From Cochliopodium minus (lineage: Eukaryota; Discosea; Himatismenida; Cochliopodiidae): a stretch of DNA of 21,890 nt. The notes beneath the pieces were generated by a model, which worked only from the letters and a program-made list of their open reading frames with translations, did not search any database and was not told the origin of the DNA. Location: contig JAMYWO010000496.1 of the NCBI GenBank assembly GCA_024220525.1, positions 1 through 21,890 of the forward strand, in the 5' to 3' direction. Below, in pieces: positions 1,467 to 21,890 of this stretch. Both the position numbers and the translations under genes were made by a program. How positions within the stretch are numbered: position 1 is the first letter of the stretch; each line of letters begins with the position of its first letter.

Positions 1467-4400
1467 ATGAAATCCATTATTTTGGTATATTTGATATTCA
1501 TTTGGTTCTTTCTCATCAATACTATAGTTGCCCAACCACAAAGGCAATTGATAGGAGGACCATGTAATTTTAATGGAGGAATGTCAACACCAAATTGTGC
1601 ATTAAACATTCCATCCCTACTAGGATCTTGCCAAATATATTATAATGATTCATTAATTCAAACAATAGACTCATGTAGTTTTGATACTACAAATTGTGAA
1701 GTAAATGGATTAAATGGGAGAGTAGTTATTATTCAAAATTGTTTGGTTAAAGAATCATCTATTAATAATGATGAAGCAAATAAAGAAATACTCAGTAGAT
1801 CTGTGGATTATAAAGATTTTGAAAGACACGACAATAATGATGAAAAACCAAAAAAACATCATGATAAAGATGATAATAAATATGGAGAAAGAAAAATTCA
1901 AAAGGGAAGTAAAGGAGAAAGAGGACATAGAGGAAAACCAGGGCATGATGGATTTAACGGATTAAATGGTCAAAAAGGAGAAAAAGGAGTTGAGAGTGAA
2001 AAGGGAGAAAAAGGAGATAGAGGTCGCAGAGGTCATAAAGGAACCAAGGGAAACAATGGAGATAAGGGAGAAAAAGGAGATAGAGGTAGCAGAGGTCAAA
2101 AGGGGGTAACTGGTGATCTTGGATTGCAAGGAGAAAAAGGAGAGAGAGGAGATCAAGGGAGAAGAGGTCATAGAGGTCACAAAGGTTTCAAAGGAAATGA
2201 AGGAGACAAAGGACGTAGAGGACACAAAGGTCACAAAGGAGATAAAGGAAAAAGAGGTAATAAAGGACTAATTGGAGAAAAGGGAACAAAGGGAGACAGA
2301 GGTAGAGGAAGAAAAGGACAAAAAGGATCTGAAGGAATGAAAGGACGCAGAGGAAAAATAGGAGAGAAAGGAGAGATTGGAGCAGATGGACAGAAGGGAA
2401 ACATTGGAGCAACTGGAGAAAAAGGGAGAAGAGGAAATAAAGGTCACAAAGGAAATAGAGGAGAAAAGGGAACACAAGGAGATCAAGGTATCAGAGGTAA
2501 ACAAGGAATCAAAGGATCTCAAGGTGAAACTGGACCTGCAGGACCTCAAGGAGAAACAGGAGTTGGAAGAAGAGGTAAAACAGGAAAACAAGGATCCAAG
2601 GGAGTCAAGGGAGAACCAGGAAATGTGTTGACTGTTCAAGGAGCACAAGGAGGGATTGGACCTACTGGTGTTCAAGGTGTTCAAGGTGCTACTGGTGTTC
2701 AAGGTGTCGTTGGACCATCTGGTGTTCAAGGACAAAGAGGAGAAAAGGGAGATAGAGGTAAAAGAGGAAGACACGGACCTGTTGGTTTCAAAGGAGAGGA
2801 AGGAAGAAGAGGCCACAGAGGTAAAGAAGGAAGACCTGGTGCTACTGGTGTTCAAGGTGTCCAAGGTACTACTGGTGTTCAAGGTGAAATAGGAGCTACT
2901 GGTATTCAAGGCGAAATTGGTGCTACTGGTATTCAAGGTGAAATAGGAGCAACCGGTATTCAAGGTGTTCAAGGATTTACTGGTCCCCAAGGTTATCATG
3001 GTCATTCAGGTGTTCAAGGTGACATTGGAGCTACTGGAGTTCAGGGTGTTCAAGGAGCAACTGGTCCTCAAGGTCCTCTTGGTCATTCCGGAGTTCAAGG
3101 ACCTGAAGGAAAGCAAGGTCCTTCCGGTAGAAGAGGTTTTAAAGGAGATGTTGGTGATAGAGGGAGAAGAGGGAAACAAGGAGTTCAAGGTATCAAAGGT
3201 GAAGTTGGTCCATTGGGATTAAAAGGAGATAAAGGAGATGTAGGAGAAATAGGACCTGTTGGTGCTCAAGGACTTCGTGGTCATAGAGGTCGCCAAGGGA
3301 AAAAAGGTAACAAAGGAGAAGCAGGAAGACAAGGTAATCAAGGAGAAATTGGAAAACAAGGTATCCAAGGAGAAAGAGGAGAAATAGGTCCTGTGGGTCC
3401 CCGCGGAAAGAAAGGTCCACAAGGAAAACAGGGGTTTCAAGGAGCTCAAGGTATCAGAGGTAAACAAGGTCAAAAAGGAGAAAAAGGATTTGGAGATAAG
3501 GGAGAGAAAGGAGGAGTTGGTAATCAAGGAGTTCAAGGACAAAAAGGTGAGTATGGACCTCAAGGACCTAAGGGTAAAAGAGGTAAACAGGGAAACCAGG
3601 GTATTCAAGGAACCAAAGGAAACCAAGGAGACCAAGGTATCAAAGGAGAAAGAGGTTTCAGAGGATATAAAGGTAGCCAAGGTAACACAGGTTTGAAGGG
3701 AAATCAAGGAGACCAAGGAATTCAAGGTATTCAAGGTATTGAGGGTAAACAAGGTATTCAAGGGAGAAGAGGTAAACAGGGAATCAAGGGAGATCAAGGT
3801 ATCCAAGGTATCCAAGGTGTTCAAGGAGACAAGGGAAATCAAGGAGCAACTGGTGAAAAAGGAAACAAAGGAGGATATGGTCCAAGAGGAAAAGAAGGTA
3901 AACGTGGTGTTCAAGGTATCCAAGGTGTTCAAGGAGTCCAAGGAGAAAAGGGAAATCAAGGAGATAAAGGTGATTTCGGACCAAGAGGAGAAACTGGTAT
4001 GAGGGGACACAGAGGATTTAAAGGAGAAAAAGGAGATCAAGGAGATCAAGGTATCAAAGGAGAAGTTGGTCCTCAAGGAGAAACTGGTATTAAAGGAGAA
4101 ATTGGTGTTAGAGGACACAGAGGATTTAAAGGAGAAAAAGGAGACCAAGGAGATCAAGGTATCAAAGGAGAAGTTGGTCCTCAAGGAGAAACCGGAATTA
4201 GAGGTAGAAGGGGAAAACAAGGTCCTATTGGTGTCGGAGAAAAAGGAGAGATAGGTCCGCTCGGTCCAACTGGTGTTCAAGGAGTTCAAGGAAGAAGAGG
4301 TAAAAAGGGTCCTATAGGAAAACAAGGTCCATTTGGTCCTCAAGGTATCAAAGGAGAAAAGGGAGATTTTGGTCCTTTGGGTCCTACAGGAGCTCAAGGT

Positions 4401-7400
4401 ATCCAAGGAATTGAGGGTAGAAGAGGGAGACGTGGATTTAAAGGTATGGTTGGAGATAGAGGAGAAAAAGGTAACCAAGGAAATCGTGGAGAACAAGGTA
4501 TCAAGGGGGAAATTGGACCTGTAGGTAACAAAGGAGAAATAGGAAAGAGAGGAAAACAAGGAATTAAAGGTGAAGTTGGAGAACAAGGTATCAAAGGTAT
4601 CAAAGGAGAAACAGGAAAGAGAGGAATCCAAGGTAAACAAGGATCTGAAGGAGAAAGAGGTAAACAAGGATCCAAGGGAGAAAAGGGAATCAGAGGAAAA
4701 AGAGGACATAAAGGAGTCAAGGGTTATGGAGAGAAAGGTCACAAGGGAGATTCTGGTGAAGTGGGACAAAAAGGCCACAAAGGTGATAGAGGTGAATTGG
4801 GTTCTTTGGGACCACAAGGACCACAAGGAGAGAAAGGTCAAAGAGGAGATAGAGGAAAGATGGGTAAAAGGGGAAAGAAAGGAGAGAAGGGAGAAATTGG
4901 TTTGAGAGGTCCTATGGGTGTTGAAGGAGAAAAGGGAGATAGAGGTAGAAAGGGGAGAACTGGATCACCTGGTTACAAAGGACAAAAAGGAGAGTTGGGT
5001 TATGGTCTTCCTGGAGAAAATGGAGAGAAGGGAGAGAAAGGAGATTCTGGAGATAGAGGAGAGAAGGGAGAGATCGGAGAACAAGGAGCTCGTGGTTATA
5101 AAGGAGACAAAGGTACTGAAGGAGAAATCGGTAAGAAGGGTCATAAAGGAGAGAAGGGAGAAGATGGAATAACTGGACCTAAAGGTAAAAGAGGTAAATC
5201 AGGAGAGAAGGGTGATAAAGGAGATGATGGAGAGAAGGGAGAAGTCGGTCCTAGAGGTTTTGTTGGTCCTATTGGAGATACTGGAGACAAAGGTAAACAA
5301 GGACAAAAAGGAGAGTATGGAGAGACTGGAGATAAAGGGGAGAAGGGAGAAATTGGAGCTGATGGTAAGGAAGGTAAACGTGGTAAGAGAGGTGTTCAAG
5401 GTTATCAAGGAATCCAAGGAAACAAAGGTCAACAAGGAGAAAAGGGCCAGAGAGGTGACCAAGGAGAAAAGGGACGCAGAGGGAAAATTGGAAAACAAGG
5501 ATACCAAGGTCAAAAAGGAGAGTTAGGAGAGAAAGGTAAAAGAGGTAAAATTGGTTTCAGAGGGGAAAGAGGAGAAGTAGGAGAAAAGGGACAAATTGGG
5601 GACAAAGGAGATAAAGGTAGTCAAGGAAATAAGGGAGAAGTTGGGCAGAAGGGAGAAATCGGAACCAAAGGCCAACAAGGAGATAAAGGTTATAGAGGAT
5701 TTAAAGGGATTAAAGGAGACAGAGGATTCAAAGGGTTTAAAGGAGACATTGGAACCAAAGGTCAAAAGGGAGACAGAGGTCAAAGAGGTGTGCAAGGTAT
5801 TCAAGGTGACTCTGGAGAGAAGGGGGAGGTGGGTCATACTGGTAAACAAGGATTTAAGGGTATAAAGGGAGACCTAGGTCCTCAAGGAGTTGAAGGATCT
5901 CAAGGTATTCAAGGAGAAAGAGGTCAAAAGGGAGACAGAGGTAAAAAGGGTTTCAAGGGTGAAATTGGTTTGAAGGGAGATAAAGGTGATAAAGGTGATC
6001 AAGGTCAAAAAGGAGAATTGGGAGAAAAGGGAGACTTTAAAGGAAGTAAGGGTCATCGTGGTTCCAAGGGAACAAAGGGAGATCAAGGTGAACAAGGTAT
6101 TAAAGGTGATAAAGGAGAAATCGGATTGAAGGGAGATAGAGGATACAGAGGGTTCAAGGGTGTTAAAGGAGACATTGGTCCTCAAGGAGATCTCGGAAAG
6201 CAAGGAGATCAAGGAGAAGTTGGACCACAAGGAACTAAGGGAGACAAAGGTAACAGAGGTTGGAAAGGATGGAAGGGAGAGATGGGAGACAAGGGTCAGA
6301 AGGGAGAATTCGGAGAGAAGGGAGATGAAGGTAAGAGAGGACATCGCGGAGAGAAAGGAGACAAAGGTATTGAAGGAATCAGAGGTAAAAGAGGGTTCAA
6401 AGGAGATAAAGGTGATCAAGGTCAGAAGGGAGAATTGGGATTGAAGGGAGATCAAGGGAATGAAGGAAGAAGAGGAAAACAAGGTCCATACGGTCACGAA
6501 GGAGAAAAGGGAGAGAAGGGTGACTATGGTCCACAAGGAGACAAGGGAAACAAAGGAGAAATAGGGCGTAGGGGATTTAAAGGAGAACAAGGAGACAAGG
6601 GAGAAGTTGGACCTGTTGGTGTTGGTATCCAAGGTCAAAAGGGAGAAGTCGGACCTGAAGGTCATGGTAAGAGAGGGTTTAAGGGAGAGAAGGGAGAGTT
6701 AGGACAAAGGGGATTTGATGGATCTAGAGGTAAAAAGGGAGATAAGGGAGAAGTAGGACAAAAGGGAGAATTGGGATTTACCGGTCGTCGTGGAGAAAGA
6801 GGTAATGTTGGTCCTGAAGGTGCTCAAGGAGTAAAGGGAGAGAAAGGAGAAATCGGAATTGGAAAGAGAGGACGCAAAGGTGATAAAGGTGATATCGGAT
6901 TGCCTGGTTACCAAGGGTTTAAAGGAGAGAAGGGAGAATTGGGTCTCAAGGGAGATACTGGTGCTCGTGGTAAACGTGGGTTCAAGGGTGACGTAGGTAG
7001 GGTTGGTTCCAACGGTTTGCCTGGACCAGAAGGACCTAGGGGTAAAAAGGGAGAGGAAGGAAGACCTGGTATTCAAGGTCAGAAGGGAGACAGAGGAAAG
7101 AAGGGAAAGACTGGTGAGATCGGTCATGTTGGACCACAAGGACAAAAGGGGGACCGTGGTGAGACCGGAGTTGGTGCAACTGGTGCCACCGGACAAAAAG
7201 GTGAATCAGGTGAGAAAGGTGAAGTCGGAGAGAAAGGAAATTACAAAGGAAGCAAAGGTGCTAGGGGAGCTAAAGGAGCCAGAGGTAAAAAAGGTGATCC
7301 TGGACGTGATGGTGCTTTGGGCCGTGATGGTCAAAAGGGAGAAGTAGGTGAAGCTGGTCCTGTGGGTAAGAGAGGACGTAAGGGAGACAAAGGAGATATT

Positions 7401-8141
7401 GGAGGTTTCACTGCTATCATCAGGGAGAGAACTCCTCATTACATCTTTCCAAAAACTTTGACTCATGACAAACACTTTGCTAAAAATCAACCTTCTCACA
7501 CAAATTTTCAATTTAATAGATACAGCTCTACTTATGTGAGAACTAATGATGGATTATTGTCATCTCCTCGTCAAAACTTTGATGACAGAAACAACACATA
7601 CATTTTCTCTAAAGATTGTGGTGATGAAAAAGTTTTGGTTGGTGGAGAATGTTCTTGGAACATCTATACCTTTCAAGTTAAATCCATTCCTTGCCGTTCT
7701 TCTGACTTTATTGTTGAAAGTGGATGCAAAAAGAACTGTTATAGAAAAATTAAATCTGAAGGGGGAAAATTCATCGAGGAATCTGATACTATTGTCACAA
7801 CCATCAAAGCATTTGATAAAAATGGTGCAAAACAAACTTATAATCATCCTAAATGCGCTTTGTTGGAACTCAGAGAATTGTCTACCGAGGAAAGAAGTGG
7901 ATGTGGTTACTTCTGTTTCTTCCACGAATTAGAACCATATTATTTCAGAGAAAACACTTTCTCCTGTAGATATATTGTCCCTAAATTCGAAACAATCAAA
8001 AATGATAATAATAATGAATTTAATAGCGGTTTTTCATTCTCCTCTCCCCCTGTAGAAGAAGAAACAAACGTTTATGCAAATTCTATCCAATCAGTTATTG
8101 TTGAAACTTTTTGTGCTCAATTGGTTACACGAGAAAAATAA
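1467..8141 (+). CDS. Collagen-like protein A, giant secreted Gly-X-Y protein (2224 aa, intronless)
   Basis: This is probably a secreted triple-helical matrix protein. Residues 1-22 form a signal peptide (hydrophobic core ILVYLIFIWFFL). Residues 23 to about 100 are a cysteine domain, ending in the four-cysteine pattern shared with genes B and C (GSCQI, DSCSF, TNCEV, QNCLV). Residues about 101-146 are a charged linker. Residues 147 to about 1979 are Gly-X-Y repeats, about 611 triplets, roughly 1.8 times the main helix of fibrillar collagens (about 338). They are rich in K, R, E and Q and poor in Pro. Interruptions are mainly G1G (GFG, GYG, GVG, GHG, GIG) and a few G4G (GDFKG, GNYKG). Residues 1980-2224 are the ten-cysteine C-domain (LVGGECSW, CGYFCFFHELE, TFSCRY, VETFC). 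Unlike B, C and D, the protein ends ten residues after the last cysteine, with no coiled coil. Start: first ATG, directly after an A-tract. It is a single 6.7-kb exon, convergent with gene B 96 bp away. Confidence 0.93.
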   Translation: MKSIILVYLIFIWFFLINTIVAQPQRQLIGGPCNFNGGMSTPNCALNIPSLLGSCQIYYNDSLIQTIDSCSFDTTNCEVNGLNGRVVIIQNCLVKESSINNDEANKEILSRSVDYKDFERHDNNDEKPKKHHDKDDNKYGERKIQKGSKGERGHRGKPGHDGFNGLNGQKGEKGVESEKGEKGDRGRRGHKGTKGNNGDKGEKGDRGSRGQKGVTGDLGLQGEKGERGDQGRRGHRGHKGFKGNEGDKGRRGHKGHKGDKGKRGNKGLIGEKGTKGDRGRGRKGQKGSEGMKGRRGKIGEKGEIGADGQKGNIGATGEKGRRGNKGHKGNRGEKGTQGDQGIRGKQGIKGSQGETGPAGPQGETGVGRRGKTGKQGSKGVKGEPGNVLTVQGAQGGIGPTGVQGVQGATGVQGVVGPSGVQGQRGEKGDRGKRGRHGPVGFKGEEGRRGHRGKEGRPGATGVQGVQGTTGVQGEIGATGIQGEIGATGIQGEIGATGIQGVQGFTGPQGYHGHSGVQGDIGATGVQGVQGATGPQGPLGHSGVQGPEGKQGPSGRRGFKGDVGDRGRRGKQGVQGIKGEVGPLGLKGDKGDVGEIGPVGAQGLRGHRGRQGKKGNKGEAGRQGNQGEIGKQGIQGERGEIGPVGPRGKKGPQGKQGFQGAQGIRGKQGQKGEKGFGDKGEKGGVGNQGVQGQKGEYGPQGPKGKRGKQGNQGIQGTKGNQGDQGIKGERGFRGYKGSQGNTGLKGNQGDQGIQGIQGIEGKQGIQGRRGKQGIKGDQGIQGIQGVQGDKGNQGATGEKGNKGGYGPRGKEGKRGVQGIQGVQGVQGEKGNQGDKGDFGPRGETGMRGHRGFKGEKGDQGDQGIKGEVGPQGETGIKGEIGVRGHRGFKGEKGDQGDQGIKGEVGPQGETGIRGRRGKQGPIGVGEKGEIGPLGPTGVQGVQGRRGKKGPIGKQGPFGPQGIKGEKGDFGPLGPTGAQGIQGIEGRRGRRGFKGMVGDRGEKGNQGNRGEQGIKGEIGPVGNKGEIGKRGKQGIKGEVGEQGIKGIKGETGKRGIQGKQGSEGERGKQGSKGEKGIRGKRGHKGVKGYGEKGHKGDSGEVGQKGHKGDRGELGSLGPQGPQGEKGQRGDRGKMGKRGKKGEKGEIGLRGPMGVEGEKGDRGRKGRTGSPGYKGQKGELGYGLPGENGEKGEKGDSGDRGEKGEIGEQGARGYKGDKGTEGEIGKKGHKGEKGEDGITGPKGKRGKSGEKGDKGDDGEKGEVGPRGFVGPIGDTGDKGKQGQKGEYGETGDKGEKGEIGADGKEGKRGKRGVQGYQGIQGNKGQQGEKGQRGDQGEKGRRGKIGKQGYQGQKGELGEKGKRGKIGFRGERGEVGEKGQIGDKGDKGSQGNKGEVGQKGEIGTKGQQGDKGYRGFKGIKGDRGFKGFKGDIGTKGQKGDRGQRGVQGIQGDSGEKGEVGHTGKQGFKGIKGDLGPQGVEGSQGIQGERGQKGDRGKKGFKGEIGLKGDKGDKGDQGQKGELGEKGDFKGSKGHRGSKGTKGDQGEQGIKGDKGEIGLKGDRGYRGFKGVKGDIGPQGDLGKQGDQGEVGPQGTKGDKGNRGWKGWKGEMGDKGQKGEFGEKGDEGKRGHRGEKGDKGIEGIRGKRGFKGDKGDQGQKGELGLKGDQGNEGRRGKQGPYGHEGEKGEKGDYGPQGDKGNKGEIGRRGFKGEQGDKGEVGPVGVGIQGQKGEVGPEGHGKRGFKGEKGELGQRGFDGSRGKKGDKGEVGQKGELGFTGRRGERGNVGPEGAQGVKGEKGEIGIGKRGRKGDKGDIGLPGYQGFKGEKGELGLKGDTGARGKRGFKGDVGRVGSNGLPGPEGPRGKKGEEGRPGIQGQKGDRGKKGKTGEIGHVGPQGQKGDRGETGVGATGATGQKGESGEKGEVGEKGNYKGSKGARGAKGARGKKGDPGRDGALGRDGQKGEVGEAGPVGKRGRKGDKGDIGGFTAIIRERTPHYIFPKTLTHDKHFAKNQPSHTNFQFNRYSSTYVRTNDGLLSSPRQNFDDRNNTYIFSKDCGDEKVLVGGECSWNIYTFQVKSIPCRSSDFIVESGCKKNCYRKIKSEGGKFIEESDTIVTTIKAFDKNGAKQTYNHPKCALLELRELSTEERSGCGYFCFFHELEPYYFRENTFSCRYIVPKFETIKNDNNNEFNSGFSFSSPPVEEETNVYANSIQSVIVETFCAQLVTREK
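2883..2963 (+). repeat. Three tandem 27-bp repeats inside gene A
   Basis: The units are 2883-2909, 2910-2936 and 2937-2963. Each encodes the nine residues GEIGATGIQ, with only synonymous differences. They sit in a neutral block (about 2640-3110) rich in GATGVQG and GPQG triplets that contrasts with the charged rest of the rod. Confidence 0.9.
4005..4200 (+). repeat. Tandem 108-bp duplication inside gene A
   Basis: Unit 1 is 4005-4112. A second, slightly shorter copy follows from 4113 to about 4200. The encoded 36-residue unit (12 triplets) starts RGHRGFKGEKGD and continues QGIKGEVGPQGETGI. The copies differ at a handful of mostly synonymous bases, which suggests a recent duplication that kept the Gly register. 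Confidence 0.9.
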
Positions 8142-8237
8142 AAATTTTTGATTGAAAAAAAATACAAGAAAATAAAAAAAAAAATCTATAAATTAAACAT
8201 TTTTAATTATTTAAAAGTTTTTATCCTTTTTTTTTTA
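8142..8237. terminator. Shared 3' region between convergent genes A and B
   Basis: This 96-bp AT-rich gap lies between the two TAA stops. AATAAA-type polyadenylation signals for gene A overlap its stop codon and recur near 8170. Both 3' UTRs must be very short or overlap. Confidence 0.45.
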
Positions 8238-8905
8238 TTATTTCGAAGATAAACCAAACTTTTTTCTGAAATCCTCCAATCTTTGATTGAAATCTGCTTC
8301 CTGTTGATCCAGCTCTTCATTCAAATCTCTTTGAAAAGAACTTTGTTCATCAACAGAGTCAACGTGAGAATCTACATTTGCAAAAACTTTGTCGTAATGT
8401 TGAGACAACTCGCGAACATCAGACAAAAACTTGGATTGATCGAAGCCTATATCTCTCTTTGAGAGGCGTGTGTTCTCCTCATGAAGCAGACTGTTGAAGG
8501 TCGCCTGTTCTTGGAGGTGCTCTTGTTGAGAAACTTTCTTAGAGCAGAAAGTTTCAACTACAACTACTTGTACGATTTGATCCAAAGCATTTTTGTTAAT
8601 ATCTCCCTAAAAGAAACATGAAAGATTAAAAAGTGAATTAATTTAAATCTTTCTAGAAAAAATTTATATATTTTACGAGAGAAATTTCTGTTTGAGAAAA
8701 AATTGGAGGAATGTAACTACAAGAAAAGTGTCCGTCTTCTTTGTAAACCTTCTCGAGTTGATGAAAGAAACAGAAATATCCGCATTGTGTTCTCTCGTTG
8801 GCAGAGAGGTGTCTCAAACTCAAAGTTCTGCATTGAGGAAAAGCGACAGATTTCTTTTCTCCGTTAGAATCATAAAAGGTGAGATGGTCAACTGAAGAAA
8901 AAAAA

Positions 8906-8936
<31 letters not shown>

Positions 8937-11900
8937 CCTTTTTTTTATGATTTACCTTGATCATTAGTGTTTAATTTAGATTCTAGGACACAGTTCTCGG
9001 AATCATTCTTTCCACAAAATTGTTTTTCAGAAATTTGGGAGGAGAGACAAGTGTGAGGAGCGGAATTGAAAGAGAAGACTTGCCATTCACAGTCTCCACC
9101 AACGAGAAACTCGGTATTCTCGTCGCATTTGCTGGTGAACAGGTGCTCATTCTCAGCGTCAAATTTCAAAGCAGAGAACCTCTCGTTTTTGGAATCTTCG
9201 TACTCAATGGAAACAGAACTGAAAAGATCGAGTTGTGGAATGAAAGTCGCTTCAGTGGATGGAAGGAGGACGAATGAGAAGTCGGAGGATTGGACTACAG
9301 AACGAGGAAGGAGGAAGTGAGGACTTCTCTTTCTTTGAACATCCTTGAAGGAGTCTTTGTTCTCCACGACTCTAGAGAATCTGAGCACTCTGTCTTCTCC
9401 CTTCTTTCCTTTTTGACCAGGGTTTCCCTTGTGACCTCTCTTTCCAGGCAAACCTTTTTGACCTCTGCGACCGTGATGTCCGTTGGCACCTCTGTTTCCC
9501 TTTACACCTCTATTTCCTTGGTAACCCTTGGCACCACGTTTTCCATGGTGACCACGTGGGCCTCTGATACCTCTGAACCCTTTGTCACCCTTGTTACCCT
9601 TGATGAGCGGTCTCTTTCCTCTGTTACCCTTAACTCCTCTGCGACCTTTGCTACCCTTGCTTCCCTTTGATCCTCCTGCACCAGTTGATCCCTTGACTCC
9701 CCAATCACCGTCGAATCCTTTGTCGTAATTGGCATCACCTTTGTTTCCTTTCAACCCTTTGTCTCCAGTGGTACCTTTATCTCCCTTACTGCCTTTGTCT
9801 CCCTTTATTAAACTAGGATCACCCTTGTTCCCTTTATCACCCTTGATACCCTTATCACCTTTATCTCCGTCATTTCCCTTGTCTCCTTTCAACCCTTTAT
9901 CTCCTTTGTCTCCTTTATGCTCTCCTTTTTGTCCAATATCACCCTTAAATCCTTTATCTCCTTTTTCGCCAGTTAAACCAACATTACCAGCAAAACCTCT
10001 TTCAGCAACATTTCCCTTGTTTCCATTGTCTCCTTTGTCACCTTTATCTCCGTTGTTTCCTTTGTTTCCCTTGTCTCCTTTTATACCCTTTTCTCCTTTA
10101 TCACCCTTACTACCCTTGTCTCCTTTAATACCTTTATCTCCCTTAATCCCTTTGTCTCCTTTATCTCCTTTATCTCCATTAATTCCGTCATCTCCTTTTT
10201 CTCCTTTGCTTCCACTCATGTTTTTGTCTCCCTTGTTTCCCTTATCTCCAGTATCACCCTTATCCCCCTTATTTCCTTTATCTCCCTTGCTTCCCTTCAC
10301 TCCTTTATCTCCTTTATCACCTTTGTCTCCACTATCACCTTTATCTCCTTTTATTCCTTTATCTCCCTTGTTTCCTTTTACTCCTTTATCTCCTTTACTT
10401 CCCTTGTCTCCTTTTAAACCTTCATCTCCCTTGTCACCTTTATCTCCTTTTATTCCTTTATCCCCTTTAAAACCTTTATCTCCCTTGCTTCCCTTATCTC
10501 CCTTGTTACCTTTTTCTCCAATTCTATCTCCTTTATCTCCTTTATCTCCTTTGTTTCCTTTGTCTCCCTTGTTACCTTTATCTCCCTTCACTCCCTTGTC
10601 TCCTTTGCTTCCTTTTTCACCTTTTTCTCCTTTCTCTCCTTTCACCCCTTTATCTGCAACTGCTCCAGCATCTCCTTTAATACCTTTAGTACCTTTAGTA
10701 CCTTTCTCTCCTTTCTCTCCAAAGTCTCCCTTATCTCCTTTATCTCCTTTTATATTGTTGTCACCAGTGAAACCTTTCTCTCCCTTCAAACCCTTGTCTC
10801 CCTTGTCTCCTTTAAGACCTTTGTTACCTTTGTCCCCTTTTGTTCCCTTATCTCCTTTGCTACCCTTATCGCCCTTATCCCCAGAATCGCCTTTGTCTCC
10901 TAATGTACCCTTATCTCCTTTACTTCCCTTATCTCCTTTGCTTCCCTTTAACCCTTTTTCATTTTGATCACCTTTGTATCCTTTATCTCCTTTGTCTCCT
11001 TTAGAACCCTTGTTACCTTTATCTCCATTATCATTGATTTCTCCCTTCTCTCCTCTGTTTCCTTTTAATCCTTTATCTCCCTTTTGTCCCTTTTCTCCGG
11101 TGAGTCCCTTATCTCCTTTCTCACCCTTATCTCCTTTTTCACCCTTTATTCCTTTATCTCCCTTATTCCCTTTATCACCTTTGTTTCCTTTTAATCCTTT
11201 ATCACCCTTCTCTCCCTTTTCTCCCTTTTCCCCGGTATCACCCTTATCTCCTTTTTCACCCTTATCCCCTTTATTTCCCTTGTTTCCTTTCAAAGCAACA
11301 TCTCCTTTCACTCCTTTATCTCCCTTATTCCCTCTGTTACCCTTATCGCCTTTGGCTCCTTTTTCTCCCTTATCACCTTTATCACCCTTATCCCCTTTAT
11401 TCCCCTTGTTTCCTTTATCTCCTTTGTCACCCTTATCTCCTTTATTTCCCTTCTCACCCTTGTTTCCTTTATTACCTTTATCTCCCTTATCTCCCTTGTC
11501 TCCTTTTTCTCCTTTATCTCCTGTATCACCTTTATCTCCTTTATTACCCTTATCTCCTTTTAACGCTGTATCTCCCTTATCACCTTTATCTCCTTTTATT
11601 CCTTTGTCTCCTTTGATACCCTTTTCTCCTTTGTTTCCTTTGTCTCCTTTATCACCTTTATCTCCTTTTAACGTTTCATCTCCTTTTATTCCCTTATCAC
11701 CAATCTCCCCTTTATCTCCTTTGTTACCCTTGTTCCCTTTATTACCTTTATCTCCTTTGTTTCCTATATCTCCTTTATCACCTTTATCACCTTTATCTCC
11801 TTTCGATCCTTTGTCTCCTTTATCTCCTTTATCACCTTTATCTCCTTTATTTCCTTTCAATCCTTTGTCTCCTTTGTTTCCCTTATCTCCTTTGCTTCCC

Positions 11901-12631
11901 TTGTCCCCTTTATCTCCTTTTAATCCTTTGTTGCCTTTGTTTCCTTTATCTCCTTTATCACCTTGTAACCCAAGATCCCCTTTCACTCCTTTATCTCCAA
12001 TATTACCTTTATCACCTCTATCTCCAGTATCACCTTCATTACCTTTTTCTCCTTTCTCACCTTTATCTCCATTTATACCTTTTTCTCCTTTTCCACCATT
12101 ATTATCATCCAATTTATTTCCTTTATCTCCTTTATCTCCAGTATCACCTTTTACTCCTTTATCTCCCTTCACTCCTTTATCTCCATTATTACCCTTATCA
12201 CCTTTTACTCCTTTATCTCCTTGGAGCCCTTGTGGGTAATAATCAAATCTTACATAACCAAACTTACAATTATCTATTGAGACATAAGGTTGAATCACAT
12301 TACCACTAATTTTACATGTATTTGGATCTGTATTATTTGGGTCTGGTGAACCATTCATATTGATTGTACAAATTTGATAGGTTGATAATAATTGTTCATT
12401 GGAATATAATTGGCAAGGAGTGACCAATGCTATTTCATTAATTTGAGTTTCATAAGGAAATCTTATTGAACAAGATGATAAATTCCATGGAATAGTAGCA
12501 CCTGTTGAATTCAATCCAGACAATGTACAATTTCCATATAATTGTGCATAAGAATCTCTAGCACAACTTATATAGGGAAGTATTGCCAATAAAAGAAGTG
12601 AAATGTAGAAAATATACTCCTTTCTCACCAT
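8238..12631 (-). CDS. Collagen-like protein B, G-D-K-rich secreted protein (1419 aa, 3 exons)
   Basis: Exons: 12631-8956, 8891-8677 and 8606-8238; donors GTAAAT and GTAAAA, acceptors TTCAG and TTTAG. The frame closes exactly at 1420 codons. Residues 1 to about 24 are a signal peptide (FYISLLLLAILPYISC). Next comes a cysteine N-domain with the shared pattern (TPCQL, QICTI, NTCKI, DNCKF). Residues 135 to about 1080 are about 315 Gly triplets, dominated by GDK, GNK, GSK and GEK, with about five prolines by eye. Register-keeping Gly replacements recur (GDT-ALK, GDV-ALK, GDQ-NEK). The last roughly 95 residues of the rod turn basic (RRG, HHG, KRG). After a KR site comes the ten-cysteine C-domain (LVGGDCEW, CGYFCFFHQLE, HFSCSY, VVETFC), then about 90 residues of charged, probable coiled coil. 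The ATG at 12631 is the first in frame and leads straight into the signal peptide. This is a paralogue of gene A; extracellular function is inferred. Confidence 0.91.
8898..8936. repeat. AAAAT microsatellite inside intron 1 of gene B
   Basis: The run is an A-tract followed by four to five AAAAT pentamers on the plus strand. It lies wholly within the first intron (8892-8955) of gene B, where it supplies the T-rich tract before the acceptor. Confidence 0.8.
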
Positions 12632-13022
12632 CACAATTTTTTTTTTAAAATTTTTTAATCTTGTCAAAATCTTTTTATTGACACCATCGGTTTTAAAAAA
12701 ATAAAAAAAAAAATTTTGAAAAGTGAAATATGCACTAATTTAGTTTATAAATAAAAAAATGATTTCATAAAGAAATCAATCAGATATCATTACCAAATCT
12801 TATTATAATTTGATTTTATAAGATCTCAATTATCATGATCCAAAAGGAAAGAAATGGACTCTCCTCCAAACTTGAACATATCTTTATATATTTTCTAAAA
12901 ATGGTAATTAGAATATTCAAGAAATGATTTAGTTATGATTATCAAAATTGGAGATTTGATTGAACAGAAAAAAGATCAAATTTTGATTTTTTTCTTTTTT
13001 TGTCCTTTCAAAAATAAAAAAA
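12632..13022. promoter_or_regulatory. Divergent intergenic region between collagen-like genes B and C
   Basis: This 391-bp AT-rich stretch separates the start codons of B (minus) and C (plus) and so should drive both, which makes co-regulation possible. Homopurine/homopyrimidine tracts flank each ATG. GATCAAAT occurs at 12974-12981, 42 bp before gene C. No coding stretch or RNA gene was seen. Confidence 0.5.
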
Positions 13023-15146
13023 ATGAAAATTTTATTTCTATTGATTGTCTTGTTTGTATATTTTGTACAATGTAAAGACATCTATGTTGGCAAAGGAACC
13101 TCAAAAGATAATTTGGAGATAATTTTTTTTGTTGGAATCAATAAGTGCAGAATAGAAGAGAATGCACAAATTATGGAAATAAATGGATGCAAGTTTGAGA
13201 GTTTTGATAAAATTTGTTTCATAAGGGGAAAGGATAAAGTGATTCAAATAACTGATTGTACATTTGAAAATAATGAAGAGAAATCCCAGAGTGGTAACAA
13301 ATTAAGAGAAAACATACCCTCTGAAGAGGCCAAGGAAGAAAATTTGATTAAGAAAGAATTTTTCCCTGATAGAGTGGCCCCACCAAGGGAAAAGAAGGGA
13401 AGAGGAAGAAAATATAAAGGACAAAAGGGAGAAAGAGGTAAAAAGGGAGATCCGGGTCTTCCTGGTGCAGATGGGCTGAATGGATACAATGGACTTAATG
13501 GAAAACGTGGTAAACAAGGTAAACCTGGAAAGACTGGTGATAAAGGTTCAAAGGGAGATCCAGGTTATGGATATGCTGGTCCAAGAGGAGATACTGGTAT
13601 TCAAGGCTCAACTGGATTTACTGGCCCAATAGGACCTACTGGTATACAAGGAGCTACTGGTAACGAAGGAGCTACTGGACTTCAAGGTCTTACCGGTCCA
13701 CAAGGGTATACAGGACCACAAGGACCAACTGGAGTCACTGGACAAACAGGATTGAAGGGAGATAAGGGGGAGATTGGAGATCAAGGTCCCAAAGGAAATG
13801 ATGGTGAAGATGGTAAACCCGGAAAGAAGGGAGATAAAGGAGAAGTAGGACAAAAAGGAAGAAGAGGAAAGCATGGTATTCAAGGAAGAAGGGGAAGAAC
13901 AGGAGAAAAGGGTGAGGTAGGGCCACAGGGTGAAAGAGGTAAAACTGGAGATACCGGACTTAAAGGAAGTCGTGGTAGAGAAGGTAAGCAAGGTTTTAAG
14001 GGATCAAGAGGTAGAAGAGGTGAACAGGGTTTCAAAGGCAACGACGGAGATAGAGGAGAGAAAGGTGATGTTGGAGAACAAGGTCCTATAGGGCGTCAAG
14101 GTAAAAAAGGAACAAAAGGTACAAAGGGAGAACAAGGAGATAGAGGTCTTAGAGGATTCAGGGGTGTTCGAGGAGAACGTGGATTCAGAGGAAAAACCGG
14201 TCATAAGGGACAAAAGGGTGAATCTTCTTATGTAGAGAAGAGAGTCGCAGAAGATATTGGTTTTGAAAGAAGCCAAAAGAGAGTTTTCTTGGTTCCAAAT
14301 GTTTCTGAAATTCCTCAAGAACTCACTTTGTTGAACCCTCAAATCAATTTGATGTATGTATCAAACGGCGAAAATACTTTTGGGTGGAAAGAAAGCAAGA
14401 TCATTAAGAATGTTGATCAAACTTTTACTGAAACTTGTGGAAGTGATCGTGTTGTGATCAGTGGGAAGTGCCAAATGAATGTATTCAACTTTGTCAAAAA
14501 GCTATCTCCTTGCCTCGTATCTGATTTCGATTCATTCCCTTGCAAACAAGATCAAGTGAATTGTATTTCGAGCATCACACCAAAAGATGGAGAATTTAAC
14601 AACCAACAACTTCCATTGGTAGAAAGCCTCAAATTTATCAACACTCTCAAAGAGGAGGTAGTTTTGTCTCCCCTTTGTACTATTCTCCAAACTTCAGATC
14701 TTAGCCAACCAGAATTAGATAAATGTGGATACTTCTGCTACATTCATCAATTAGATGCCGAATTCATTTCTGAAAGTTCTTTTTCATGCAAATACAACTC
14801 CCCTTCAGAGTTTAAAGATTCTCATGTTGTTTCTATATCTATTCAAACTTTCTGTGGTGACAAAGAAAACGAGGTCTCTAAAGATGGTACCAGCACTCAT
14901 CCTTTGACCATGTCTCAAGAGTTGTTGAATGAAAACAAGGTGTTGACCCTTGAAGTTGAATCTGATCACAAAGAGATTGAAGAGTTGAAAAATGAACAAA
15001 AACTAGAAAAAGAGAGAGAAGAAAAAGATGAAGAAACTTTGGCTCTCCTTATGCAAGAGATTGCAAAGTTAAAAAAACTTCAAGATCAACAAAATACCCC
15101 AAAGAATGTTGATCTCAATAATTCTATTGAATCAAAAATAAATTAA
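13023..15146 (+). CDS. Collagen-like protein C, short-rod member (707 aa, intronless)
   Basis: Residues 1-17 are a signal peptide (MKILFLLIVLFVYFVQC). The N-domain carries the four-cysteine pattern shared with A and B (NKCRI, NGCKF, KICFI, TDCTF). A charged linker leads to Gly-X-Y repeats at residues 133-401, about 89 triplets. They open with GDPGLPGADG, pass through a neutral Thr/Gln/Pro block (GPTGIQGATG, GPQGYTGPQG) and end in a basic RRG/FKG block. A QKR site precedes the C-domain (about 415-650), whose ten cysteines align with A and B: TETCGS, SGKCQM, SPCLV, FPCKQ, VNCIS, SPLCTI, CGYFCYIHQLD, FSCKY, IQTFC. The last roughly 70 residues are Glu/Lys-rich and heptad-like, a probable coiled coil. 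It has a single exon and an A-tract before the ATG. Very likely a secreted paralogue of A, B and D with the shortest rod. Confidence 0.94.
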   Translation: MKILFLLIVLFVYFVQCKDIYVGKGTSKDNLEIIFFVGINKCRIEENAQIMEINGCKFESFDKICFIRGKDKVIQITDCTFENNEEKSQSGNKLRENIPSEEAKEENLIKKEFFPDRVAPPREKKGRGRKYKGQKGERGKKGDPGLPGADGLNGYNGLNGKRGKQGKPGKTGDKGSKGDPGYGYAGPRGDTGIQGSTGFTGPIGPTGIQGATGNEGATGLQGLTGPQGYTGPQGPTGVTGQTGLKGDKGEIGDQGPKGNDGEDGKPGKKGDKGEVGQKGRRGKHGIQGRRGRTGEKGEVGPQGERGKTGDTGLKGSRGREGKQGFKGSRGRRGEQGFKGNDGDRGEKGDVGEQGPIGRQGKKGTKGTKGEQGDRGLRGFRGVRGERGFRGKTGHKGQKGESSYVEKRVAEDIGFERSQKRVFLVPNVSEIPQELTLLNPQINLMYVSNGENTFGWKESKIIKNVDQTFTETCGSDRVVISGKCQMNVFNFVKKLSPCLVSDFDSFPCKQDQVNCISSITPKDGEFNNQQLPLVESLKFINTLKEEVVLSPLCTILQTSDLSQPELDKCGYFCYIHQLDAEFISESSFSCKYNSPSEFKDSHVVSISIQTFCGDKENEVSKDGTSTHPLTMSQELLNENKVLTLEVESDHKEIEELKNEQKLEKEREEKDEETLALLMQEIAKLKKLQDQQNTPKNVDLNNSIESKIN

Positions 15147-15368
15147 TATATTTTAAATTTTAAATAATTTTTTTGATTAATATTAAACTTATCCACTTCA
15201 TGAGAGGAATCTGTATGTTCGAATCTTGAACTTAAATTTATTTAAATATATTTTTATTATTAATATTTATTATTTAAAAATTTCTTTTTCTCATTTGATT
15301 TAGTTCAAAAAATAAAAAATAATTGACCAAAGTATTTTGAGTTAATTAAACAAATTGAGTATTATCAA

Positions 15369-17201: not shown

Positions 17202-17509
17202 TGATTTTTTGTAATATTATTATATTTAACTTTATTTGCTTTATCAAACTATTATATATTGATCATTTCTATTTATATAGAATTTCTAGAAAAAAAAAAA
17301 AAAATTGGAAAAAATGAAAGCTGAATTTTCAAATTTAATGGGTATGGATGAATTATCCTTTTCAAATGAGTTCAATCAATTTCTCATCGAAGAATCAACC
17401 ATCAAATCAGAAGTAGTAAAAATAATTAAGAAAAAAAAAATCAGAAAATAATTCATGATCAATTCAAAAAAAATCACCAAAATAAAAAAAAAAAAAGAAT
17501 TATATCAAA
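17202..17509 (+). other. Intergenic region with one 45-codon ORF (17314-17451)
   Basis: This 308-bp stretch lies between the PA-7TM gene and the ankyrin gene and should include the latter's promoter. It contains an ATG after a long A-tract at 17314, opening 45 codons to a TAA at 17449-17451 (starts MKAEFSNLMGMDELSFSN, ends KKKKIRK). Its amino-acid mix is less AT-driven than random intergenic sequence here, and the block EFNQFLIEES faintly recalls the N-terminus of small Tim8-type chaperones, but no cysteine motif follows. It could be a small gene, an unspliced first exon of the ankyrin gene, or chance. Confidence 0.3.
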
Positions 17510-19472
17510 ATGTCATCTTGTATGGAAGATAATGAAGAATTGGGAGCAAAAGTATATTTATATTGAAAATTTTAATTTTTTAAATTCTCAACATCAAAAA
17601 AATAATAAGATATTCAGTTGGATAGAAAAAGGAAAGATGACAAAACTAAAACAATTAATGGAAAGATTTAAAAAAGAAGATAGAGAAGAGGAAATATTCG
17701 ATCTAGAAAATACTGAAGGGGACACAATGCTTCATCATGCTTGTAAAAAAAAAAACTTGAAAAGATTAAAAATATCACAATCAAAATCCAAAAAAAAAAA
17801 CAAATTTTATCGACTATTATGATAAATTTTTTTCAATTCAAAAGGTAAAAAAACGAACAAAGTGGAAATGATAAAATATTTGGCTGAATACAAAGCAGAT
17901 TTTAAAGCAAAGAATAGAGGAGGAGAGACGTGTCTTCACAATGCTTGCTGGAACACAAATAACATAGAAATAATAAAGTTCTTAATATTGGAGATGAAGT
18001 GCGACATCTACGCAAATGACGATGATGGGGATTCACCACTAGATTATGCAGTGATGGGAAACGGCAGTGTGGAGATAATAAAATTTTTGGTGGAAGAAAT
18101 AAAAGTTGAGATGGCGGAAGATTCTCAAAAGAATTCTCCTCTTCACATATCTTGTTCGAATAACGAAAGTTTGGATATTATTTCCTACATTTACGAGAAA
18201 TATCCTGACAATATTAACACTCAAAACAAATATGGAAATACACCCCTTCACTGTTCCTGGTAAAATCAGAAAATTTTCTTGTTTCTTCAGAAGGACAAGT
18301 TTTTAATTTTTATTTTATTTTTTTATTGATTTTATTTTTTAAAGCTGGTTCAACCGCAACACCAGAATAACAGAATTTTTGCTAGAAAAAAAATCCGACC
18401 TGAATATTCTTAACAACGAAGGCACACTCCCTTTTGGCATGCTTTCTCTCAACGAAAACCTCAATGAAAGAGATACAAAGAACCTCATCCTTTATTTTTC
18501 AGAAAAGCTCAAATTTCTTCTTGTGCATCTCCCTCCAACCGAAAATGCTACCAACTCCTCCGCTTTTTCCCAACACCTCTACTCCCGTTCCCTTTGCTAC
18601 TCCAAAATTTTCTACCACGAAAATGAGCTTAAGGACTTGGAGAAGTACATTCTTTTCAACGAGGAAAAGTCCTTCTCTTATTTTTTATTTGCCAAAACTT
18701 TTTTTTCTTTGAGAATGTTCGAGATTTCTCTTTATTTTTTCGACATTTCAAAGAAACTGGGTGAAGAGAAAAACCTTATGGAGATTCTCCAGTATGAAAA
18801 TTCTTTAGAAAACAAACAATATGGACACGAATTGATACTTCCCATGAAACGAAACAGTGTCTCCTTTAAATATTTCAAGTTTTTGAACAAGCTCAACCAA
18901 GCCAATATTTATTTACAAAATTTTGAATACGAAAACTCCCTTAAAAAATTCAATGGAGCTCTTTTTTTATCTAAATTTTCCGTTTTGAAAAAAGATGTCT
19001 TGGTGGGTCGTTGCCAAAGTTACTATGAACTCCATGAGTTTGTCCTTTCTATTGAAGATTGTGACGAAGTTTTGAGGATTGACAAAAACAACAAAGTTGC
19101 TTTGAAAATAAAAATGTTTTCGTATTTGAAGCTTGGAAACAAGATTCAGCACGAAAAACTCTTTTTGGAGTTTACAAATTTGCAGGGAAAAAAAGAATTC
19201 AGTTCATCGAGAGAATACTATTTTTACCTCAAAAAAGAAAGCAAAAAACAGTTGATCTTAGAACGAGGAGCGTCGATTTGTGCTCATTGTAAATCATCTG
19301 AAAATCTAAAACTTTGTATTAGGTGTATGAAAGTTAAATATTGTCAAATTGGTACTTTTTAAAAACAAAAAAAATAATTTGACTCATTCAAAATTTTTTG
19401 TTTAAAATAAAAAAAGAGTGTAGGATAGCAAATTGGAAAGAACACAAAAATTATTGTGAACCCTTAATTTAA
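17510..19472 (+). CDS. Ankyrin-repeat, TPR-like, MYND zinc-finger protein (550 aa, 5 exons)
   Basis: Exons: 17510-17551, 17610-17742, 17845-18259, 18345-19351 and 19417-19472. All introns are GT-AG and the frame closes at 550 codons. Ankyrin repeats fill residues about 40-225: EGDTMLHHAC, GGETCLHNACW, DGDSPLDYAV, QKNSPLHISC and GNTPLHCSC, each followed by an EIIKFL-type helix. A helical, TPR-like middle follows (QANIYLQNFEYENSLKKF, YELHEFVLSIEDCDEVLRID). The last 40 residues are a complete MYND finger, assembled only after the last intron is removed: CAHC, CIRC, YCQI-EC, WKEHKNYC. MYND fingers bind proline-rich peptides, and ankyrin plus MYND proteins are usually cytosolic or nuclear adaptors. 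The start is the least certain part: the ATG at 17510 with a 58-bp first intron is preferred for its A-rich context, but an unspliced start at 17532 reads into the same frame. Its stop is only 54 bp from that of the convergent GLUG-like gene. Confidence 0.85.
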
Positions 19473-19526
19473 CAATTTCCAATTAAATTAAATTTATTTG
19501 TAATTTCTCAGTTTCATATCCATTTT

Positions 19527-21107
19527 TTATTGGGGTTTGTTTGTAGAACATCCATTTGTACAATTACAGTACCCATATCTAGGTTCATACTCTGATTGAA
19601 ATATTTTAGTGATAATTTTAAGGTTTTTTTAAAATAAAAAAAAGCAGACCATTTTTGAGATTATCACCAGACCACAAGTATTTCTGATCAAAATTGCCCA
19701 AGATGTGAGAATAAAGTTCTGGACAAGATAAACCAATGGGAAAACTTTGATCATTACAATTACCAGACTTTATGGAGGGCATATCTTCAAACTGCTTGAA
19801 GAAGTAAACGTTAGAAAAGGAACAAGTGGTGTTTATGAGTATTGAACCAATAGACGAAGAGCTATTAGGGTTGGAATAATAGTTGGAAGAGTAACTATTT
19901 ATAATTGTAAAAAGCCCATTCAGCAATATATCCAAAGTATTTAACAGTCCGACTGAAAAACCAGAATTTCCTTCTTGTATTATTTTTGCTCTTGTATATA
20001 CATCGCTTACTGAAGTCCTAGCTGTTTTTTATTGAAAAACAATATCATTTTTTTAATGAAAAGCAAAAAAATATTTTTTTTTGGGAAAATATTACCTCTG
20101 GAAGATCTGAAAACAAATATGAAACCACTGGCTTGTGGAGCATTTATAGTGACGCTTTCTTTTACATAAGATTGGCTGATTGGAGTATTATCTACATTCA
20201 TCACCAGTCCTGCAGCTGCTGAATTTCCTTTTATTAATCCGTTACTCACTCCTGAATTAATGATTCTTCCAAAAATTGATGATCCTATTCCTCCTATTTT
20301 ATTTAAAAATTGAATTAATAATTCTAAAAAATAAAAACAAAAAATGTTCACCAGCATAATTGGCATTTATAATTGTGGTCTTTGGGCTTGAAGGAAATCC
20401 TATGTTGTGACAATTAATGATGTTGGCAGATCCTATTCTATTGATGGTATGAATTTTTTTTTAAGTTGACCTTTCTTTAATCTATAGGTTGAATGTTTAC
20501 CCTATGAATGATCCTCCTCTTGATGATGGAGAATATAGAATGGTATTTTGTATCAATGAATTCGTTATTGTGTTGAATTGTGAGGATTGCCCTACAATAA
20601 TGGATGATAATTGATTGGGGGTCACATTATCTATTGAGCTGATGAGATTGCTGAGTGATGGATGTGTTGTATTGAATATTAGATTATCGATTAAACAATC
20701 TGAGCAAATAGCAAATAGACCAGAGAGGATTGTCGCGTTTGAAAATATATTTATATTCAAAATACTCAAATTTCTGATGTTGACATAATTTCCATTGAGG
20801 ATTAATGCAACATTTTTATTTTCATAATCGGTGATAGTGAGATTTATTATTGAATAACCATTCCCATCGAGAATTCCTTTATAATTATAAAAGAATATTC
20901 TATTTAGAAAAAGAAATTGATACCATTGAAAGATGAGATTGGTTGAAAAGGATATGAAGTGCAATCGATAGAATTGGTGAGGAAATAATTGATGGTGGGA
21001 TTCAATTGATCAATATTTTGTAATTGATAACAATTAGAAAGGGCTACCATTTGGGAATTAACATTAATAATAACAAGAAACAAAATGAATATAAACAATA
21101 ATTTCAT
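19527..21107 (-). CDS. Secreted GLUG-like repeat protein (about 420-426 aa, 5 or 6 exons)
   Basis: Exons: 21107-20924, 20876-20501, 20437-20352, 20293-20096, 20021 to about 19650, and probably 19591-19527. Residues 1-19 are a signal peptide (MKLLFIFILFLVIINVNSQ). The body matches the GLUG/right-handed beta-helix type: FNGILDGNGYSIINLTI spans the first junction, then VNIRNLSILNIN, LSGLFAI, GGSFIG, ANIINCHNIG, IFGRIINSGVSNGLIKG and SAAAGLV. A W-x5-LKNG segment near the end fits the usual close of such repeat units. The 3' end is ambiguous. Read through exon 5, the stop is at 19618. With an intron from either GTGATA (19667) or the weaker GTCTGC (19649) to the acceptor at 19592, the protein ends in a cysteine-rich tail EYEPRYGYCNCTNGC and stops at 19527; both keep frame. 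Such proteins are secreted or surface-bound; the ligand is unknown. Confidence 0.74.
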
Positions 21108-21286
21108 TTCTATTTTATATTATTTCTTTTATTTATCAAATTTATTGACCAAATTTAATCATGATAAAACAAAGTTTGATTAATCCTTTCTAACAAACCA
21201 AACCTTTAAATGTTATTCATTATGCATATTGCTAAATGAAGAAGAACAATTTTTTTTTAATTAAAATATTTAATTTATAATTTTTT

Positions 21287-21890
21287 TTAGATCAACAATT
21301 CTTTTTTAAGAATATCAATCTGTTGTTCTTCATACAATTTTTCTTTCTCAAGCTTTGATTTCATATGTAAATTCTCATTCTTCAAATTGGTAATTTCTTG
21401 TTTGAATTGTTGTTCTAACTTTAGTTCTAAATCATTCTCAAAAGAAGTAAGATCATCAGATAAATCGAGTTGATGTTGTAATTGTTTGATCTTGTTGAAA
21501 GCATCGACTTCATTGAATTCTTGGGAGAGAACAAGAGTATTTTGTTCCTCGATCTTGTTGGAAATCTCTTCAAAAATTTTGGTTGGCTTGTTCTCTTGTT
21601 CTTCGATGGGATTTTGTTCTTGTGGGAGTTGGTCGTTGCCTGCGCAAATTGTTTCAACAACGACAACTTGAACGATTTGATCCCAAGCATTAGTGTTTAT
21701 TTGTTTGTTTTCTCCCTAAAAAAAGAAATTAGTAAATTTAAAAAAATTAAACAAAAAGATTAATTAATTAAAAGAAATAATCAGAAGAAATTATAAATTT
21801 CGAAACAATAAAAAAGAAAGAAAGAATTTTAAAAAGAAATTTACAAATGGAAATTGAGGAGAAGGTGCAAAGAGAGGAGGAAGATAACTG
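21287..21890 (-). CDS. Collagen-like paralogue D, C-terminal end only (partial)
   Basis: Two exons are visible: 21890-21845 (cut by the window edge) and 21715-21287. The intron runs from GTAAAT to TTTTAG. The partial exon ends SYLPPLFAPSPQFPF, matching gene B, where SYIPPIF follows the FSC cysteine. The last exon starts GENKQINTNAWDQIVQVVVV and reaches ETIC. Gene B has GDINKNALDQIVQVVVVETFC at the same place after an intron at the same position and phase. The remaining roughly 115 residues are Glu/Gln/Lys-rich with heptad-like leucines and isoleucines, a probable coiled-coil tail ending KKELLI. The collagen rod itself would lie beyond the right edge and has not been seen; membership rests on the C-terminal match. 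Its stop lies 179 bp upstream of the GLUG-like gene start on the same strand. Confidence 0.86.

What the first reader, a model, noticed from the sequence alone, without database searches (positions are those of the whole stretch)
1467..21890. Cluster of four collagen-like paralogues with constant caps and variable rods in a protist-like genome
A, B and C share a signal peptide, a four-cysteine N-domain, a Gly-X-Y rod and a ten-cysteine C-domain; D shows the same C-terminal end. Rods are about 611, 315 and 89 triplets, so the caps are conserved while length and chemistry diverge. Animal collagens are the usual setting for a dedicated trimerising C-domain, and I do not recognise these caps as any named collagen NC domain. 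This may be an independently evolved matrix system with family-specific assembly domains.
Basis: partly seen in the sequence, partly recalled or inferred. Interest (0 to 1): 0.82.

Follow-up and report, generated by a model that had tools for sequence, protein, structure and literature searches.

The report
Protist collagen-like genes with unnamed caps
A compact, apparently microbial eukaryote genome carries a cluster of related genes for probably secreted, collagen-like rods of very different lengths that share end pieces matching no named protein family found here, a possible separate use of the collagen rod outside animals whose assembly has not been tested.

Summary
A (1467-8141, +), B (12631-8238, -, three exons) and C (13023-15146, +) each encode a hydrophobic leader, an N-cap with four invariant cysteines, a Gly-X-Y rod (about 611, 315 and 90 triplets) and a C-cap with exactly ten cysteines. 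The C-caps are clear paralogues (21 to 41 sd above shuffles); the N-caps are weaker, B against C marginal. D is only a 3' fragment; it shares B's tail and an intron position, and its rod is outside the window. The C-caps matched no Pfam or NCBIfam family, and no relative of a cap was confirmed in the viral, prokaryotic, phage or plasmid searches made. No cap was found in 80 viral loci with similar rods. A short C..GG motif of a bacterial post-collagen domain resembles the C-cap's start; kinship is unproven. Rods hold no GPP in 982 triplets and excess Lys-Gly-Asp/Glu pairs. Best reading: secreted trimeric collagen-like proteins with family-specific assembly caps. Trimers, secretion and lineage are inferred; no eukaryote collection could be searched. 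Protist collagens are already reported, so: new variant of a known kind.

The parts
1467..1904 (+). Gene A: leader and N-cap (four shared cysteines) with charged linker
1905..7400 (+). Gene A: Gly-X-Y rod, 1832 residues, 16 perfect runs
7401..8141 (+). Gene A: linker and ten-cysteine C-cap, without the charged tail of B, C and D
12230..12631 (-). Gene B: leader and N-cap
9392..12229 (-). Gene B: Gly-X-Y rod, 946 residues, 17 perfect runs, dominated by GDK/GNK/GEK
8238..9391 (-). Gene B: linker, ten-cysteine C-cap and charged tail; introns 8955-8892 and 8676-8607
13023..13418 (+). Gene C: leader and N-cap (four shared cysteines)
13419..14225 (+). Gene C: Gly-X-Y rod, 269 residues, one interruption
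14226..15146 (+). Gene C: linker, ten-cysteine C-cap and charged tail
21287..21890 (-). Gene D, 3' end only: end of C-cap and charged tail; intron 21844-21716 at the same codon as B's second intron
12632..13022 (.). 391-base interval between the divergent start codons of B and C; possible shared promoter region (inference)
   Evidence: gene models

Best explanation
These are secreted collagen-like proteins of a microbial eukaryote. Three like chains probably meet through the cysteine-rich C-cap, which sets register and starts zippering of a triple helix; in B, C and D a charged tail may help. With little proline and no GPP, the rod is held mainly by Lys-Gly-Asp/Glu ion pairs between chains. 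The small cysteine-bearing N-cap closes or links the other end. Rod length (roughly 520, 270 and 77 nm at 0.286 nm per residue, a recalled figure) is the variable part, so one assembly module serves spacers or fibres of different reach in a cell coat, cyst wall or matrix. Shown: architecture, paralogy of the C-caps, rod periodicity, ion-pair excess. Inferred: secretion, homotrimers, C-to-N folding, disulphides, site of use.
For: Gene models and rods; Pfam Collagen in all three; ten invariant cysteines; C-cap paralogy 21 to 41 sd. Lys(Y)-Gly-Asp/Glu pairs: A 113 of 579 against 60.8 +/- 5.3 for shuffled triplets (0 of 2000 shuffles reach it), C 11 of 87 against 5.3 +/- 1.8 (3 of 2000), B 128 of 281 against 117.8 +/- 4.0 (19 of 2000). 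GPP 0 of 595, 298 and 89 triplets. Hydrophobic leader and no strongly hydrophobic stretch in the C-terminal part (best 19-residue hydropathy 0.85 to 1.1). That a non-collagenous domain directs trimer formation, and that bacterial collagens form triple helices without hydroxyproline, is described in PMC8968730 (passages read).
Against: No direct evidence of trimers: the C-cap model had pLDDT 49.6 and no fold match better than E 1.3. B's ion-pair excess is small because its composition alone nearly forces it. A and B rods fall into 16 and 17 perfect runs, so they are broken many times. A lacks the charged tail, so the tail is not essential. No expression or localisation data.
Confidence: 0.6

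Rival explanations
1. Surface adhesins or fibres used in feeding, prey capture or attachment, with the C-cap as ligand-binding head on a collagen stalk, as in bacterial collagen-like adhesins or collectins, rather than a matrix.
For: Stalk-plus-head layout; rod length as the variable part; the C-caps have diverged to 35-38% identity in local alignments (31-32% to C), as ligand-binding heads often do.
Against: No membrane-spanning stretch is suggested in the C-terminal parts, so nothing visible would hold them on the cell; all ten cysteines are kept, which also suits a shared assembly role.
Confidence: 0.2
2. Origin rival, compatible with the best explanation: the C-cap descends from the short C..GG..C domain that follows collagen repeats in some Actinomycetota, enlarged by insertions, so the genes or their caps came from bacteria. 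(Raised from 0.07 after a recheck showed the bacterial domain to be a real, wider family.)
For: The domain was found in 14 of 396 genomes of the phylum at E 1e-4 or better, and 6 of the 16 loci read carry collagen runs of six or more triplets in the same open stretch. With 19 bacterial sequences hhalign aligns its C..GG motif with the start of the C-cap: P 0.025; 1 of 200 column-shuffled controls scores as high; the first 45 columns alone P 0.004; in a core of first 45 plus last 40 columns 0 of 200. Both domains end in a strand-like segment with a cysteine (by eye).
Against: hhalign probability is only 2 to 8.5 percent and 17-21 columns are aligned; with fewer sequences P was 0.17 and 0.21; the C-terminal ends do not align (last 40 columns P 0.33). 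The lead was picked by eye, so these P values flatter it. The C-cap profile itself found only chance-level places (8 of 149 genomes at E 1, best 0.026 with stops inside) and nothing in genome contigs.
Confidence: 0.12
3. Ordinary animal-type collagens in a small, compact animal genome (for example a rotifer- or myxozoan-like one, recalled).
For: AT-rich compact genomes with short introns also occur in animals (recalled). The NOL10 neighbour scores best against the PDB chain named Nucleolar protein 10 (2.1e-51) before the ENP2 chains (4.9e-43 to 1.4e-26; that these are human and fungal is recalled), but only four sequences matched.
Against: No GPP in 982 triplets and 0.5-5.2% proline; no named collagen NC domain in Pfam; rod of A unbroken by introns over 5.5 kb.
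Confidence: 0.08

Closest known systems
Animal fibrillar and network collagens (COLFI, C4/NC1, NC10, C1q)
   Same: Secreted rod with a dedicated non-collagenous C-terminal domain; long Gly-X-Y rod
   Different: C-caps match no Pfam model and N-caps none above cutoff; little proline, no GPP; no introns in A and C
Ministeria vibrans collagen IV (PMC5560861, passages read)
   Same: Collagen with a C-terminal domain in a single-celled eukaryote
   Different: That one bears the animal C4 pair; here no C4 match
Gly-X-Y repeats in Monosiga, Salpingoeca and Dictyostelium (PMC5395295, passages read)
   Same: Collagen repeats in protists
   Different: The passages read do not describe shared ten-cysteine caps or a gene cluster; not compared by sequence here
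Mimivirus collagen-like proteins L71, R196, R239-R241, L668, L669 (PMC9614988, passages read)
   Same: Proline-poor Gly-X-Y rods
   Different: Those named proteins were not compared; in 80 viral loci with B-like rods no cap was found
Bacterial collagen-like proteins (Scl, Bcl; PMC8968730, passages read)
   Same: N-domain, rod, C-domain; helix without hydroxyproline
   Different: No C-cap relative in 72,556 plasmid records, 50,697 phage records or genome contigs
Actinobacterial C..GG..C domain after collagen repeats (loci L002, L021, L107, L110 and others)
   Same: Follows Gly-X-Y repeats in some proteins; C..GG motif at its start aligns with the C-cap's start
   Different: About 60-95 residues with mostly two conserved cysteines against about 160-180 with ten; ends do not align

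Membership tests
Collagen superfamily (triple-helix repeat) | Long Gly-X-Y repeat recognised by PF01391 | tested here: met
   A 6.2e-273, B exon 1 9.4e-140, C 1.9e-45
Collagen superfamily (triple-helix repeat) | Three chains wind into a triple helix | not testable with these tools
   needs circular dichroism or structure; no trimer prediction available
Animal collagens | Proline-rich rods with GPP, source of hydroxyproline | tested here: not met
   0 GPP in 982 triplets; Pro in Y position 9, 3 and 5 times in A, B and C
Animal collagens | A named NC domain (COLFI, C4, NC10, C1q) | tested here: not met
   no Pfam family up to E 1 for the N-caps of A and B and the three C-caps; C-caps none up to E 10, 3 of 3; C's N-cap only Adeno_E1B_55K (0.028; 0.006) and PDZ (0.095), below their cutoffs. 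A very diverged domain could be missed by single-sequence scans
Collagen IV | Pair of C4 domains | tested here: not met
   no C4 match
Actinobacterial C..GG..C domain after collagen repeats (unnamed here) | Profile similarity over the domain | tested here: inconclusive
   motif only: 19-sequence profile P 0.025, probability 2%, 21 columns; 1 of 200 shuffles as high; last 40 columns P 0.33
Viral collagen-like proteins | Shared caps with KGD-rod proteins of viruses | tested here: not met
The window's own genes scored 2e-29 or better on N-caps, by construction. Flanks were at most 6 kb and some rods may be cut
Right-handed beta-helix proteins (N-cap) | Beta-helix fold | tested here: inconclusive
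   Adeno_E1B_55K E 0.006, below cutoff, 1 of 3 members (that this is a beta-helix family is recalled); model pLDDT 59.9, strands and one short helix, best fold match E 0.2, another fold

The most novel reading that the evidence does not exclude
A eukaryotic lineage outside animals built its own collagen system: a multigene family in which a new ten-cysteine trimerising domain and a new N-cap are joined to freely lengthened, ion-pair-stabilised, proline-poor triple helices, making fibres up to about half a micrometre long.
Probability: 0.35. Interest if true: 0.75.

Novelty: new variant of a known kind. Interest (0 to 1): 0.52.

Why it matters
Animal collagens depend on dedicated trimerisation domains and on hydroxyproline. 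A protist family with its own caps, very long rods and no GPP would be an independent test of what a collagen needs in order to assemble and to be stable, and could supply material for engineering long collagens without hydroxyproline.

Tried and rejected
C-cap searches in viral contigs, genome contigs, phages and plasmids confirmed nothing. N-cap search in viral contigs: nothing. PDB by sequence: best E 0.25 (C alone) and 0.34 (profile), taken as chance. PHROGs: best 0.096, each of three families matched by 1 of 3 members. NCBIfam: none. C-cap model pLDDT 49.6, fold matches all at E 1.3 or worse: discarded. N-cap model pLDDT 59.9, 508 matches at E 10 or better, best 0.2 (Ph1500), none at 0.001: not used.

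My first reading of the other places used only one strand for part of the check and missed two real relatives, L023 and L025; one search recovered them. Of the rest, L007, L008, L009, L010, L011 and L024 did not look like the domain and were dropped. Comparison with the C-cap: P 0.17 (4 sequences), 0.21 (5), 0.025 (19); controls. Left open, not adopted.

Lineage: no tRNA (bacterial setting) and no Rfam match. Codon use (its row B_C was in a wrong frame with 11 stops and slightly pollutes the totals) recalls amoeboid protists from memory only. Seven paper searches: no listed title or shown abstract start describes such a family; this is not proof of absence. Passages of PMC6892926 (Willaertia), PMC11702301 (amoeba genomes) and PMC4448552 (lysyl oxidases) gave nothing on such genes.

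Full report
What is there. The window is a compact stretch of an AT-rich eukaryote genome. At its left end on the minus strand is a NOL10/Enp2 gene (Pfam Beta-prop_NOL10_N, E 5e-26; PDB chain named Nucleolar protein 10 at 2.1e-51). Then come A (1467-8141, +), B (12631-8238, -) and C (13023-15146, +), a putative multi-pass membrane protein gene that seems split by introns (about 15.4-17.2 kb), an ankyrin gene with a sub-threshold TPR match and, by eye, a MYND-like end (17.3-19.5 kb), a leader-bearing gene on the minus strand (about 19.6-21.1 kb), and the end of D on the minus strand. A and B lie tail to tail, 96 bases apart; B and C lie head to head, with 391 bases between start codons (from the models).

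Rods. A, B and C have rod spans of 1832, 946 and 269 residues with glycine at 33.5, 31.9 and 33.5 percent; 595, 298 and 89 triplets lie in 16, 17 and 2 perfect runs. Pfam Collagen matches each. This is far beyond chance. Chemistry differs: B is dominated by GDK, GNK and GEK with 0.5 percent proline; A has more varied triplets and 3.1 percent; C has 5.2 percent. No rod holds a cysteine or a GPP triplet. Lysine in Y followed by Asp or Glu in the next X, the pairing known to stabilise proline-poor collagens (recalled), exceeds shuffled triplets strongly in A (113 against 60.8 +/- 5.3), moderately in C (11 against 5.3 +/- 1.8) and slightly in B (128 against 117.8 +/- 4.0).

Caps. The C-caps share ten invariant cysteines and a CGYFC block and hold no others; pairwise scores are 40.7, 33.3 and 21.5 sd above shuffles. 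The N-caps share four cysteines; their scores are 5.5, 4.3 and 2.4 sd, so the B-C link rests on A and on the shared layout. N-caps and C-caps do not resemble each other. D, seen only from the end of its C-cap on, matches B over the tail (43 of 114 identical) and has an intron at the same codon as B's second intron; A and C are intronless. D's exon also matches the three-sequence C-cap profile at E 0.0048 although it was not in it. Hence B and D are probably sister copies. Tails of B, C and D are 34 to 39 percent charged and poor in Pro and Gly; the best hydrophobic period was near the heptad only for B (3.44; C 3.1, D 3.16), so coiled coils are not established.

Known families. The C-caps gave nothing in Pfam up to E 10 or NCBIfam, chance-level PHROGs and PDB. 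The N-caps of A and B gave nothing in Pfam; C's gave only sub-threshold Adeno_E1B_55K and PDZ. No relative of the C-cap was confirmed in viral contigs (0 of 150 candidate stretches), genome contigs (0 of 100), 50,697 phage records or 72,556 plasmid records; for N-caps 0 of 44 in viral contigs. Searches are pattern-first scans that can miss distant relatives. Rods alone do find bacterial and phage collagens (19 plasmid and 355 phage records for C's rod), as any Gly-X-Y repeat would, so rod similarity says nothing on descent.

Viral comparison. In their 8161 open stretches, 91 of them with at least 15 perfect triplets in a row, no cap was found (best E 0.26 and 0.058); the window's own genes score far better in the same search, but by construction. 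The named mimivirus proteins were not compared.

Bacterial comparison. A domain of about 60-95 residues with a C..GG motif and a closing cysteine follows collagen repeats in Nonomuraea and in several unnamed Actinomycetota genomes. A profile of five found it in 14 of 396 genomes at E 1e-4 or better; 6 of 16 loci read have collagen runs of six or more triplets in the same open stretch. hhalign aligns its C..GG motif with the first columns of the C-cap: P 0.17 and 0.21 with four and five sequences, 0.025 with 19. Of 200 column-shuffled controls 1 scored as high; the first 45 columns alone gave P 0.004, the last 40 P 0.33. Because I chose this comparison after seeing the motif, I call it suggestive and unproven. 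It is the main threat to the word 'independent'.

Structure. AlphaFold2 with three sequences gave mean pLDDT 49.6 for the C-cap and 59.9 for the N-cap, with 39 of 81 residues between 70 and 90. No match reached E 0.001. I draw no fold from these.

Lineage. Short AT-rich introns (B 64 and 70 bases, 11 and 16 percent GC; D 129 bases), compact genes and proline-poor rods favour a protist. I could not search any eukaryote collection, so whether the family is known elsewhere under a protein accession is open, and a small animal is not formally excluded.

Literature. Gly-X-Y repeats are reported in Monosiga, Salpingoeca and Dictyostelium (PMC5395295, passages), a canonical collagen IV in Ministeria (PMC5560861, passages) and seven proline-poor collagen-like proteins in mimivirus (PMC9614988, passages). 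Collagens outside animals are therefore not new; the caps, the cluster and rods of up to about 1800 residues without GPP are what may be new.

Verdict. Observation confirmed, with D partial and the N-cap link weaker than stated.

Noticed in passing
window 1-966, - strand: NOL10/Enp2-like gene with at least one intron; a good marker for placing the genome in a eukaryote tree.
   Followed up: partly
window 17310-19470, + strand: Ankyrin-repeat gene with introns whose 3' end looks, by eye, like a MYND zinc finger split by an intron, with a sub-threshold TPR match.
   Followed up: no
window 15360-17200, + strand: Apparently intron-split gene for a probable leader-bearing, multi-pass membrane protein; no Pfam match above cutoff for the two stretches scanned.
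   Followed up: no
window about 19600-21107, - strand: Leader-bearing gene with repetitive segments resembling a beta-helix by eye; no Pfam match for the one stretch scanned.
   Followed up: partly
window linkers between rod and C-cap of A, B and C (about 7401-7470, 9391-9290, 14226-14300): Basic stretches (QRKR-S in B, QKR-V in C, RER-T in A) followed by a similar hydrophobic-Pro motif; possible processing site between rod and C-cap, as in procollagens. Read by eye only.
   Followed up: no
L002 580-2835; L021; L106-L121: A widespread actinobacterial domain (C..GG near its start, closing cysteine), in several proteins right after collagen repeats; the one member scanned has no Pfam match above cutoff. 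It may be an undescribed collagen-capping domain of bacteria.
   Followed up: partly
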